Below, in pieces: positions 16,379 through 38,117 of a DNA stretch of 64,000 nt. The position numbers and the translations under genes were made by a program. Within the stretch, counting starts at the first letter, position 1; the number at the start of each line of letters is the position of its first letter. Source of the DNA: Armatimonadota bacterium (GTDB lineage: Bacteria; Armatimonadota; UBA5829); assembly GCA_039679645.1 (NCBI GenBank), contig JBDKUO010000066.1, forward strand, positions 1-64,000, in the 5' to 3' direction. Under the pieces are notes generated by a model. It had not been told where the DNA came from and searched no databases. It saw only the letters and a program-made list of their open reading frames with translations.

Positions 16379-17036
16379 AATAGCTGGCATAGTTCTTGCT
16401 GTGATCATGCTGCTTGCAGTAGCTGTGCCTTGCGTGGCTTCTAAGCCTGATGTGAAGAAGTCAGACAAGAGCTCGTCTCAAACGACAGTCGCGAAAGCAA
16501 ATAGTGGAGAGCAGGACTTTCTTGCGTCGCTGGAATCGGCGAACAAGGAACCTTCGGATGAAAAAGAGGCTCCTGTTTATGTTACGGCCTTGAGTTTCAT
16601 CTTCAAGCTGGCATTGGTGCTGGCTCTGGCCTATGGGACAGTCGTTGTCTTGAAGAAGTTTACGAACTTCAAGTCAACAATGGGTGCAAGTCAGGGACGG
16701 ATAAGGGTCATCGAGCATTCCGCACTCGGAGCGAACAAGTCACTTCATCTTGTGGCGGTCGGCTCTAAGAGACTTCTGGTGGCATCGACCGCAAACCAGA
16801 TCAGTCTGGTTGCGGAGCTTGACCCCGAAGAAGTTACTGAGACTGATGCAAATGTCCCCACCGGCGGCGAGCCGGCAGGCGGGTTTAAGGAACAGCTATC
16901 GATGTTTCTTGGCAACAAGACAGACACGACTGAGAGCGCAAAAACCGTCGCTCAAATGCTGAGGGAATCCAGTTCGTTTCTGCAAGACAAGGTGAGGGAA
17001 GTAGGATGCTTCCGAAGGACTTTTAGGGATGTCTGA
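16362..17036 (+). CDS. fliO: Flagellar biosynthetic protein FliO
   Basis: The 224-residue protein has an N-terminal signal-like helix (MLRLLKIAGIVLAVIMLLAV), a charged periplasmic stretch, a second membrane helix (VTALSFIFKLALVLALAYGTVVVLKKF) and a cytoplasmic FliO domain (IRVIEHSALGANKSLHLVAVGSKRLLVASTANQISLVAEL in blocks). FliO helps assemble the FliP-FliQ-FliR pore. The ATG at 16362 has GAAAGG upstream and overlaps the fliN end; a TTG at 16335 is an alternative. The overlap with fliP is 8 bases. Confidence 0.86.
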   Translation: MLRLLKIAGIVLAVIMLLAVAVPCVASKPDVKKSDKSSSQTTVAKANSGEQDFLASLESANKEPSDEKEAPVYVTALSFIFKLALVLALAYGTVVVLKKFTNFKSTMGASQGRIRVIEHSALGANKSLHLVAVGSKRLLVASTANQISLVAELDPEEVTETDANVPTGGEPAGGFKEQLSMFLGNKTDTTESAKTVAQMLRESSSFLQDKVREVGCFRRTFRDV

Positions 17037-17907
17037 GTTTCGCTCTACACAAATAGCAAAACGTATTACAGCCGTCATTCCGAGGAGGAACAACAAGGAA
17101 TCTGCTGTTAAGGATATAAAAAGGCAAATATCCCGCATCGCTCGAAATGAGCAAGCGATCGTTGTGTTATTTGTATTGATGGTTGCGTGCCTTGTATTCG
17201 CTAGTGCGCCCTGCTTTGCTCAAAGCGGAACACCTGTGCCAAAGATAGACATAGGTGTGGGAAGCGCAAAAAGCCCCGAAGAGGTATCTAGTAGTCTGCA
17301 GATACTGTTTATATTGACCATTCTATCCCTTGCTCCTGCGCTGCTGATCATGCTGACATCATTCACACGGATTATTATCGTGCTCTCATTTACACGCAGT
17401 GCAATAGGCTCTGCTCAAGTCCCGCCCAACTCGGTTCTGGTCGGCCTTGCATTATTTCTGACATTCTTTACTATGGCTCCTGTGTGGCAGCAAGTTAATA
17501 CAACCGCGCTTCAGCCATATATGAATCATAAGATATCGTTTGATAAGGCGACAAGCAATGCCACAGGCCCTATTAAGGACTTTATGCTGAAGCAGACCCG
17601 TCCAAAGGATATTGGCTTGTTTATTAACCTGTCGAAGTCGCCAAGACCGCATACTAAAGACGATCTGCAGATGCATGTGCTCATTCCTGCATTTCTAATC
17701 AGCGAACTCAAGACAGCTTTTACCATCGGTTTCGTAATCTTTATCCCATTCTTGGTAATCGACATGGTTGTCTCCGTGACTCTGATGTCGATGGGTATGA
17801 TGATGCTGCCGCCGGTAATGATATCACTGCCTTTTAAGATACTGCTGTTCGTGCTTGTAGACGGCTGGCACCTCATAGTTCGCTCGCTTGCTCTGAGTTT
17901 CCACTAG
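17029..17907 (+). CDS. fliP: Flagellar export gate protein FliP
   Basis: The 292-residue protein has an unusually long basic N-terminus (about 45 residues) before a signal-like helix ending at the CFAQ site. The conserved FliP core follows: ILTILSLAPALLIMLTSFTRIIIVLSFTR, PPNSVLVGLALFLTFFTM, KTAFTIGFVIFIPFLVIDMVVS and LMSMGMMMLPPVMISLPFKILLFVLVDGW. FliP is the main pore subunit of the flagellar type III channel. A terminator-like hairpin follows, splitting fliP from fliQ. Confidence 0.93.
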   Translation: MSEFRSTQIAKRITAVIPRRNNKESAVKDIKRQISRIARNEQAIVVLFVLMVACLVFASAPCFAQSGTPVPKIDIGVGSAKSPEEVSSSLQILFILTILSLAPALLIMLTSFTRIIIVLSFTRSAIGSAQVPPNSVLVGLALFLTFFTMAPVWQQVNTTALQPYMNHKISFDKATSNATGPIKDFMLKQTRPKDIGLFINLSKSPRPHTKDDLQMHVLIPAFLISELKTAFTIGFVIFIPFLVIDMVVSVTLMSMGMMMLPPVMISLPFKILLFVLVDGWHLIVRSLALSFH

Positions 17908-17932
17908 CTCGTTTTTTATATCTTGTTTTTGA

Positions 17933-17959
17933 TGGTCCGGGTCTAGGCCCGGACTTTTT
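17933..17959 (+). terminator. Hairpin with T-run between fliP and fliQ; copy of a palindromic repeat
   Basis: GTCCGGG (17935-17941) pairs with CCCGGAC (17948-17954) and is followed by TTTTT. This has the form of an intrinsic terminator inside the flagellar cluster. Its sequence GATGGTCCGGGTCTAG is almost the same as one arm of the 50-base palindrome in the RNase P RNA gene (36258-36307). It is therefore probably a dispersed repeat that may also attenuate transcription. Confidence 0.65.
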
Positions 17960-18066: not shown

Positions 18067-18336
18067 ATGACTGATGCCGGAGTTCTTGATCTAGCACAGC
18101 GCGCGGTTATGATAGCGCTTATGATATGCGCGCCGGCTTTGGGTCTGGGAATGGTTGTAGGTCTGGTGGTGAGCGTGTTTCAGGCTGCTACTCAGATTCA
18201 AGAGATGACACTTACATTTGTGCCGAAGATACTTGCTGTCGTGACTGCGCTTGTGGTCTTTGGGCCATGGATGCTCAGGAGCATGGTGTCTTTCACAACT
18301 AAACTATTCGTCAGTCTTCCCAATCTGGTGCACTGA
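18067..18336 (+). CDS. fliQ: Flagellar export gate protein FliQ
   Basis: At 89 residues with two membrane helices (VMIALMICAPALGLGMVVGLVVSVFQA, FVPKILAVVTALVVFGPWMLRSMVSF) this is a standard FliQ. ATQIQEMTLTFVPK between them is the family loop that plugs the pore. GGAG precedes the ATG at 18067. The 159-base gap before it is wide for this cluster and holds the fliP-fliQ hairpin. Confidence 0.93.
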   Translation: MTDAGVLDLAQRAVMIALMICAPALGLGMVVGLVVSVFQAATQIQEMTLTFVPKILAVVTALVVFGPWMLRSMVSFTTKLFVSLPNLVH

Positions 18337-36122: not shown

Positions 36123-36128
36123 GAAATC

Positions 36129-36508
36129 GAGCGAGTCGGGTGATCGCTTCGAGCCGATTGGCTTGGGGAGGAAAGTCCGGGCTCCACAGGGCAAGGTGGT
36201 TGCCAACGGCAACTGTCCCGTGCGTCGGGATAAGGAAAGTGCCACAGAAAAGAAAACCCTTCCCTGAGATGGTCCGGGGTCTAGACCCCGGACCATCTCA
36301 GGGAAGGAAAGCTGAAACGGTGGTGTAAGAGACCACCAGCTTCGTCGTGAGGCGGAGGCTTGGTAAACCCCACCTGGAGCAAGGCCGAATAGGGGAGGGC
36401 TGAGGCTGCCCGCTGACCTCCCGGGTGTCGCCGCTAAAGCCACGCAGCAATGCGCGTGCATAGATAGATGATCACACTAGACAGAACCCGGCTTACAGAC
36501 TCGCTCAC
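36129..36508 (+). ncRNA. rnpB: RNase P RNA (class A)
   Basis: The catalytic RNA of RNase P, which matures tRNA 5' ends. The universal 5' core GAGGAAAGTCCGGGCTCCAC lies near 36168. ACAGAA and the 3' core ACAGAACCCGGCTTACAGAC lie near 36484-36503. P1 forms from GAGCGAGTC (36129-36137) and GACTCGCTC (36500-36508). Other A-type landmarks are the CACAGAAA...GAAAACC entry to P12, GGTGGTGTAAGAGACCACC (P13/P14 area) and AGGCTTGGTAAACCCCACC. The length, 380 bases, is normal. P12 is replaced by a perfect 50-base palindrome (separate entry). Long ORFs over this region are accidental. Confidence 0.96.
36258..36307. repeat. Perfect 50-base palindrome inside RNase P RNA (P12 region)
   Basis: Two 25-base arms (36258-36282 and 36283-36307) are exact reverse complements meeting at TCTAGA. 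In the folded RNA this would be a very long stem at the tip of P12, a helix that tolerates large size changes. Its inner part (GATGGTCCGGGGTCTAG) is nearly identical to the hairpin between fliP and fliQ at 17932-17947, so it is probably a mobile or recombining palindromic repeat. Confidence 0.85.
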
Positions 36509-36542
36509 GCATTCCAGTGGGTTTCTATGTGCTCATTTGTGC

Positions 36543-36592: not shown

Positions 36593-36667
<75 letters not shown>

Positions 36668-36670
36668 TAC

Positions 36671-36702
36671 GACCCCCTGCGGTAGAAATACCGTGGGGGG
36701 TC
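36671..36702. terminator. Hairpin between tRNA-Pro and the integrase gene
   Basis: GACCCCC/GGGGGTC and CGGTA/TACCG form one stem capped by GAAA, with a single internal mismatch pair. A T-rich stretch follows on the plus strand (GAGTATTTT). It can end tRNA transcription and, from the other side, the integrase message, which stops only 9 bases away. Confidence 0.7.
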
Positions 36703-36710
36703 AGAGTATT

Positions 36711-38117
36711 TTACAGGTCTGACTCGTCTATTGTTATAGAGTCTATAGATAGCCGTGTCTCAAGCCGTATCCACCGTGGCTCTGATGAGTGTACATAAAT
36801 CTCAGGGCACATCGTTAGTAACAATGATCTGCGTTCATCTGTAGACATTCTACCCCAATAATCCTTGATATGCACAGACAGCTCAATCAGGTCCTCTCGG
36901 TTGAACGGCGTGATTTGTGGAGCTGTAGACAATTCAGCTATTTCTTTGTCAATCTCAGCCAGTTGCGACTTCAACTCGTCAATCGTTTCTATGATGCCAC
37001 AAGCATACATCTCTTGCTTGCGCTTTTTGCATTCGCGTAGTGATCGTATACGGTTATCATTATTTCTTTCGGGCTGATCATCCTTCGATATATCGAATTT
37101 AGACAAGTGTGCTTCCAGCGCTTTAGTTAAGCCAATTGGAACTAGCTTATTGAGCCAGTTGCTGCTAAGGCGCTTGCTGTCTCTGCATATTCCACTTTCT
37201 GCTTTACCCCTGCAAATATACATCTCATAGCGGTTACGAGCCTCATGAACCTTGTAACCACATCCGCACTGAGCGCAAGTCAATACGCTTGTGTATGTAT
37301 AAACATTTGGGCTTTTGCGAGCCTGCCTTCGTCGTTTTGTGCCCAGCAGTAGATCGGCGTGTGTAACGAGTTCCGGTGGTACAACGATAGGAACATTATC
37401 GGACTGCAGATCAATGTCGGCGTAGTGTATTCTACCCCTATAGATGGGATTCGTAACCAGGAATGTTACACCGTCATCGCGCCAGAGATTACCTTTTGCA
37501 GTTCGGATTCCACGCGAATTAAGCCTTGACGCTGTGAGGCTCTTGTTGCCGTTTGATTCGATAAATGTCTTAAATACTGCTACAGCGTCACTGCCTCGTG
37601 CTTCATCGACACTGAGGATTTTCGTCTTCTTATCATACGCGAACCCTAGTGGTGGATATCCAGATGGCCAGATTCCGTGTGCGGCAAGCTGGCGGCACTT
37701 TTCTTTAGTTCGTTCTCCTGTAAGGGTGCGTGAATGGTGAGCGAACAATACATTGATGTGTTTGAGCAACCAACCTGAAGAATCTTCTGTATAACGCTCC
37801 GTGGCATAAACAATTTTAAGTTTGTGCTTATGCGCTGCTTCTTCAAATTGCATAAAGTCCAGCATATTTCTAGAAAGTCGGTCAAGCCGTACGAGTAGTA
37901 CGGTATCAAATCCCTTGGGCTTCCGCTCGGCAAGCAAATTTTTGAAGCCGTTCCGTGTGGTTATCGATTTACCACCCGAAACGGCTTCGTCTGAATAGAC
38001 AGCTACAATTTTATACCCCTCACATGATGCAAACTCCATCAAGATTCCGAGTTGAGTTTCAGGACTGTCTTCCTGCTTGTCTGTCGAGCAGCGAAGATAT
38101 GCTGCTGCAGGTATCAT
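36711..38117 (-). CDS. Large serine recombinase (phage integrase)
   Basis: The 468-residue protein has an N-terminal resolvase domain with catalytic Ser11 (AYLRCSTDKQEDSPETQ) and the LLVRLDRLSRN block. A recombinase domain (PLGFAYDKKTKIL, SLTASRLNSRGIRTAKGNLW) and a zinc ribbon (CAQCGCGYKVHEARNRYEMYICRGKAESGIC, four Cys in CxxC pairs) with a coiled-coil tail follow. Such enzymes integrate phage DNA at short att sites without host factors. AGGAGA precedes the ATG. Its 3' end faces tRNA-Pro. Confidence 0.95.
   Translation of the reverse strand: MIPAAAYLRCSTDKQEDSPETQLGILMEFASCEGYKIVAVYSDEAVSGGKSITTRNGFKNLLAERKPKGFDTVLLVRLDRLSRNMLDFMQFEEAAHKHKLKIVYATERYTEDSSGWLLKHINVLFAHHSRTLTGERTKEKCRQLAAHGIWPSGYPPLGFAYDKKTKILSVDEARGSDAVAVFKTFIESNGNKSLTASRLNSRGIRTAKGNLWRDDGVTFLVTNPIYRGRIHYADIDLQSDNVPIVVPPELVTHADLLLGTKRRRQARKSPNVYTYTSVLTCAQCGCGYKVHEARNRYEMYICRGKAESGICRDSKRLSSNWLNKLVPIGLTKALEAHLSKFDISKDDQPERNNDNRIRSLRECKKRKQEMYACGIIETIDELKSQLAEIDKEIAELSTAPQITPFNREDLIELSVHIKDYWGRMSTDERRSLLLTMCPEIYVHSSEPRWIRLETRLSIDSITIDESDL

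What the first reader, a model, noticed from the sequence alone, without database searches (positions are those of the whole stretch)
36258..36307. A perfect 50-base palindrome inserted in the P12 helix of RNase P RNA, related to an intergenic repeat
Two exact 25-base arms replace the usual P12 stem, while all core RNase P motifs are intact. The core GATGGTCCGGG(G)TCTAG recurs in the fliP-fliQ hairpin. A dispersed palindrome has apparently landed in, or been captured by, an essential RNA at a site where a longer stem is harmless. Exact arm identity suggests recent insertion or ongoing repair between arms.
Basis: partly seen in the sequence, partly recalled or inferred. Interest (0 to 1): 0.66.

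Follow-up and report, generated by a model that had tools for sequence, protein, structure and literature searches.

The report
REP-like palindrome in RNase P RNA
In an uncultured Armatimonadota bacterium, a side stem (P12) of the essential RNA enzyme RNase P carries the arms of a small palindrome found at about 30 other places in the genome, which looks like another case of a mobile-type repeat tolerated at the most permissive spot of this RNA.

Summary
A perfect 50-bp palindrome (two 25-nt arms) forms the whole of P12 in a full-length, single-copy class A RNase P RNA gene. Its central arms, GATGGTCCGGG / CCCGGACCATC, belong to a dispersed family. The 11-mer occurs 32 times in this 3.4-Mb genome (about 1.6 expected; 0 for the reversed control), and strict hairpins with the 8-nt core arms occur 11 times (0 control). 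The family looks like repetitive extragenic palindromes (REPs). Most copies are a hairpin with a GATG foot at one end only, often followed by a second hairpin. Y1 transposases named REP-associated by NCBIfam occur in this genome, and in related genomes they are flanked by inverted GAT(G)-footed hairpins with similar stems. Four other species of the genus have different P12 stems without this sequence, although their RNase P cores are about 95% identical where measured. The outer 10 bp and the 8-nt loop of the palindrome are not shared with the family, so only 22 of the 50 bases are demonstrably repeat-derived. Precedents exist: Rickettsia palindromic elements in RNase P RNA and tmRNA, and repeats within cyanobacterial rnpB. 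This is a new member of a known kind, of modest interest.

The parts
36128..36511 (+). rnpB, class A RNase P RNA
   Evidence: RF00010, 264.9 bits (cut-off 100), model 1-367 complete; only match in the genome
36258..36307 (+). perfect palindrome forming P12, two 25-nt arms
   Evidence: folds alone at -51.4 kcal/mol in a 61-nt stretch
36268..36297 (+). REP-like hairpin GATGGTCCGGG-GTCTAGAC-CCCGGACCATC
   Evidence: both arms match the dispersed 11-mer; one of 11 strict GGTCCGGG-N4-12-CCCGGACC hairpins in the genome
36279..36286 (+). centre GTCTAGAC, self-complementary; differs from the ATTTGAAT of most dispersed copies
36258..36267 (+). outer P12 stem, 5' side CCTTCCCTGA, not shared with the repeat family
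   Evidence: absent from the flanks of the dispersed copies
36298..36307 (+). outer P12 stem, 3' side TCAGGGAAGG
17931..17955 (+). fliP-fliQ intergenic hairpin with the same foot and TCTAG loop, followed by T-run; terminator-like
   Evidence: flanking genes FliP 17029-17907 and FliQ 18067-18336

Best explanation
The tip of P12 in this RNase P RNA is a copy of the inner hairpin of a dispersed REP-like palindrome family, GATG foot plus GTCCGGG...CCCGGAC stem. It most likely entered the P12 tip as single-stranded DNA during replication, through REP/RAYT (Y1 HUH transposase) activity or by template switching. It then stayed because P12 is a terminal stem whose length and sequence are free in this family. 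In the RNA it simply extends P12 to a stem of about 23 paired bases, and selection for a closed stem (or arm-to-arm template correction) keeps the arms exact. Shown: palindrome, P12 position, arm identity with the family, absence in four congeners, RAYT genes present. Inferred: the insertion event, its agent, and neutrality.
For: Palindrome and P12 position. 32 copies of the 11-mer arm against 1.6 expected and 0 control; congeners hold 1-11. 11 strict hairpins against 0 control, 0-3 in other members of the order and nearly none elsewhere in the phylum. Broader core GGGAT-N0-8-ATCCC: 93 against 8 control. Only 12 of 2,000,000 shuffles of the arm contain the 11-mer. Copies have the foot on one side (9 of 10 strict dispersed hairpins on exactly one side) and at least 14 are followed by a second hairpin. 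P12 of G001, G002, G003, G004 is short and different; the RNase P core is 94.4-95.5% identical in G001, G003 and G004. Transposases match NCBIfam NF047646 REP-associated tyrosine transposase above cut-off. In G004 and G017 such genes are flanked by inverted hairpins GATGGTCGGGGG..., GTCCGGGG..., GATGTCCGGGG....
Against: Only the two 11-nt arms match the family; the centre, the outer 10 bp and the second hairpin do not. Single BLAST matches to dispersed copies are weak (E 0.06-1.5). No RAYT of the own genome is flanked by this exact hairpin. No strain-level empty site was available. Two related genomes have P12 stems of 67-72 nt that are not repeats in their own genomes, so long P12 can also arise without a repeat.
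Confidence: 0.75

Rival explanations
1. Ordinary stem evolution: P12 lengthened by slippage or template switching within the gene and the match to the dispersed family is coincidence.
For: P12 varies widely in this family (25-83 nt between motifs) and long ones in G011 and G013 are not dispersed repeats. Outer stem and centre are not shared with the family.
Against: An 11-nt arm match in the right register to a family with about 30 copies is improbable (12 in 2,000,000 shuffles contain the 11-mer anywhere).
Confidence: 0.12
2. The hairpin family is a set of transcription terminators or protein-binding palindromes rather than mobile REPs, and P12 borrowed one by recombination.
For: The fliP-fliQ copy scores as an intrinsic terminator, and it shares the TCTAG loop with the rnpB copy only.
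Against: Most copies have no T-run; they have a one-sided GATG foot, a second hairpin, and some are interrupted by an apparent insertion sequence in the loop, all REP-like.
Confidence: 0.1
3. Assembly or binning artefact at the palindrome.
For: Draft assembly in 69 contigs.
Against: RNase P RNA is continuous and complete on both sides, the palindrome ends where P12 should end, and the genome is 99.7% complete with 0.9% contamination.
Confidence: 0.03

Closest known systems
Rickettsia palindromic elements (RPE) in RNase P RNA (M1 RNA) and tmRNA genes (Ogata et al. 2002, as reviewed in PMC2229807)
   Same: A dispersed palindromic repeat inside the RNase P RNA gene, presumably neutral
   Different: RPEs are 105-146 bp and occur in Rickettsia; here a 30-bp REP-like hairpin in Armatimonadota. 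The exact site of the RPE in the RNA was not checked here
STRR repeats in rnpB of heterocyst-forming cyanobacteria (Vioque 1997, cited in PMC2858038; original not held)
   Same: [quoted passage not shown] P12 is described as sometimes dispensable in cyanobacteria
   Different: Short tandem repeats, not a palindrome; that they lie in P12 is from memory
REP / RAYT (TnpA-REP) systems (PMC3733652, PMC6006769)
   Same: Short hairpin, tetranucleotide foot at one end, paired hairpins, REP-associated tyrosine transposase genes flanked by inverted hairpins
   Different: Foot is GATG, not the canonical GTAG/GTGG (or CGTC); no own-genome transposase is flanked by this exact hairpin

Membership tests
Bacterial RNase P RNA class A | Full match to the covariance model with conserved core | tested here: met
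   RF00010 264.9 bits, positions 1-367
REP (repetitive extragenic palindrome) | Short palindromic hairpin in many copies per genome | tested here: met
   32 arm copies, 11 strict hairpins, controls 0
REP (repetitive extragenic palindrome) | Conserved tetranucleotide foot at one end | tested here: inconclusive
   GATG-type foot on exactly one side in 9 of 10 strict dispersed hairpins, but not the canonical GTAG/GTGG; the rnpB copy has it on both sides
REP (repetitive extragenic palindrome) | Mainly between genes | tested here: inconclusive
   Most copies lie outside long ORFs by a mechanical test; two sit in long frames, conserved in G004, and look like chance 11-mers; gene annotation was not available
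REP/RAYT system | REP-associated tyrosine transposase in the genome | tested here: met
   G000 has 4 matches to the RAYT profile; the one tested passes NF047646
REP/RAYT system | Transposase gene flanked by the same hairpin family | tested here: inconclusive
   Similar GAT(G)-footed GTCCGGGG hairpins flank RAYTs in G004 and G017, not in G000 itself
REP/RAYT system | Transposase cuts or moves the hairpin | not testable with these tools
   needs biochemistry

The most novel reading that the evidence does not exclude
RAYT-type transposases target hairpins exposed in single-stranded DNA, and the P12 tip of rnpB is a recurrent landing site for REP hairpins in this order, so that an essential ribozyme repeatedly acquires transposon-derived stems. 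Only a weak second case was seen here: G005's P12 contains GAGCTTGTCGAAGG, which is present 99 times in G017 but only twice in G005.
Probability: 0.1. Interest if true: 0.6.

Novelty: new member of a known kind. Interest (0 to 1): 0.33.

Why it matters
It adds what appears to be an independent case, in a phylum for which one keyword search of the held library found no paper on such repeats, of a repeat-derived hairpin in the RNase P RNA. It also points to an unusually REP- and RAYT-rich bacterial order with a GATG foot instead of GTAG, useful for comparing how these transposases recognise their hairpins.

Tried and rejected
P12 of G011 and G013 tested as dispersed repeats: no. G005 P12 tested: its 14-mer is a repeat in G017 but essentially not in G005, so it is not counted as a second capture. 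Searches of viral contigs for the palindrome and for the family consensus: none. Exact arm identity was rejected as evidence of recency.

Full report
What is there. The window holds a complete class A RNase P RNA gene at 36128-36511 (+), 264.9 bits over all 367 model positions, the only one in the genome. Its P12 stem is a perfect palindrome, 36258-36307, two 25-nt arms with no spacer, the longest exact inverted repeat in the window. As RNA, a 61-nt stretch around it folds at -51.4 kcal/mol into one stem of 23 pairs with a 4-nt loop.

Organism. Several of its relatives share identical hairpin flanks with records titled Armatimonadota/Armatimonadetes (for example G010 = JARYME010000071, G013 = JAOAGX010000019, G016 = JAUSGG010000025), so the window is from that phylum.

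The arms are a dispersed repeat. The 11-mer GATGGTCCGGG occurs 32 times in this genome, against about 1.6 expected from composition and 0 for the reversed control. Congeners hold 1 to 11. Two of the 32 sit in long reading frames that are conserved in G004 (L255/L284, L256/L289), which is about the chance expectation. Strict hairpins GGTCCGGG-N4-12-CCCGGACC occur 11 times (rnpB included) with 0 in the control, 0-3 times in other members of the order, and hardly at all in the rest of the phylum. A broader core, GGGAT-N0-8-ATCCC, occurs 93 times against 8 for the control.

Shape of the family. The usual copy reads GATGGTCCGGGATTTGAATCCCGGACC, then a few bases, then GTAT plus a second hairpin such as GGGGATTTTAATCCCC; at least 14 copies show the second hairpin. 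In the strict hairpins, found without using the foot as a search term, 9 of 10 dispersed copies carry the GAT foot on exactly one side. Four copies break off inside the loop into a common sequence (GAGAGGCTGTCTCAAAAAT and variants), three of them near contig ends, as if an insertion sequence had entered the loop. The rnpB copy differs: foot on both sides, centre GTCTAGAC instead of ATTTGAAT, no second hairpin, and an outer 10-bp stem CCTTCCCTGA/TCAGGGAAGG that is not part of the family. So 22 of the 50 bases are demonstrably shared.

Relation to REP/RAYT systems. Y1-type transposases occur in this genome and its order, and two of them, one from G000 and one from G004, pass NCBIfam NF047646, REP-associated tyrosine transposase. 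In G004 (same genus) one is flanked by GTCCGGGGGATTCTTACCCCGGAC and, inverted, GATGGTCGGGGGTATTCTTGCCCCCGACCA. In G017 one is flanked by GATGTCCGGGGAATCCCTTCCCCGGACA and, inverted, GATGTCGGGGGAATCCCTTCCCCCGACA. This is the arrangement described for REPs and RAYTs (PMC3733652, PMC6006769), but with a GATG foot in place of GTAG/GTGG. In G000 itself no transposase was found next to this exact hairpin; the RAYT at C66:99067 has an altered C-terminus and a different hairpin beside it.

Comparison of P12. With the RNase P core 94.4-95.5% identical, the congeners have P12 CCCCGGCTTGCCGGG (G001), CCCCGGTTTCCGGGA (G004) and CCCTGCTCAGTGATGGGCAGGAG (G003); G002 has CCCTTTGGCGTCTCCGTTTGGAGCCGCTGGAGG, core identity not computed. 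None has the repeat. P12 length is free in the wider family (25 to 83 nt between motifs), and the long P12 of G011 and G013 are not dispersed repeats, so length alone proves nothing; the match to the dispersed family does. Of 2,000,000 shuffles of the 25-nt arm, 12 contained the 11-mer.

The fliP-fliQ hairpin. At 17931-17955, GATGGTCCGGGTCTAGGCCCGGACTTTTT lies between FliP and FliQ genes and scores as a terminator. It shares foot, stem and TCTAG with the rnpB copy; the two form a small subgroup. Whether it is a REP that serves as a terminator or a terminator that resembles one is open.

Mechanism. Most likely a REP-type hairpin entered the P12 tip as single-stranded DNA, by RAYT activity or template switching at replication, and was kept because P12 carries no universally conserved bases and is sometimes dispensable (PMC2858038). 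Exact arms do not date the event: selection for a closed stem or arm-to-arm correction would also keep them exact.

Known precedents. Rickettsia palindromic elements sit in the genes for RNase P RNA and tmRNA (Ogata et al. 2002, reviewed in PMC2229807), and short tandem repeats occur within rnpB of heterocyst-forming cyanobacteria (Vioque 1997, cited in PMC2858038). The kind of event is therefore known; this is a new member in another phylum.

Noticed in passing
L258, L260, L261, L269 (own genome C10:25231, C16:58291, C20:68855, C40:14708): REP-like hairpins interrupted after GATGGTCCGGGATTT by a common end sequence (GAG..GCTGTCTCAAAAAT and variants), three of them near contig ends: probably an insertion sequence that targets the hairpin loop.
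   Followed up: no
window 36593-38117: tRNA-Pro(GGG) directly downstream of rnpB, followed by a large serine recombinase gene (36711-38117, -): possibly one end of an integrated element.
   Followed up: partly
L239 (G015 C39): A RAYT gene surrounded by at least eight hairpins of two alternating types (CGGGCTAAATT... and TGGGCTAGATT...).
   Followed up: no
G017 genome, e.g. C1:32-45: GAGCTTGTCGAAGG occurs 99 times in G017, often near contig ends, and once inside P12 of rnpB in G005.
   Followed up: partly
L211 (G005 C96), 1259-1303: Long perfect-armed palindrome AATATAAATGGCGCGGCGGTC...GACCGCCGCGCCATTTATATT just upstream of a RAYT-like frame.
   Followed up: no
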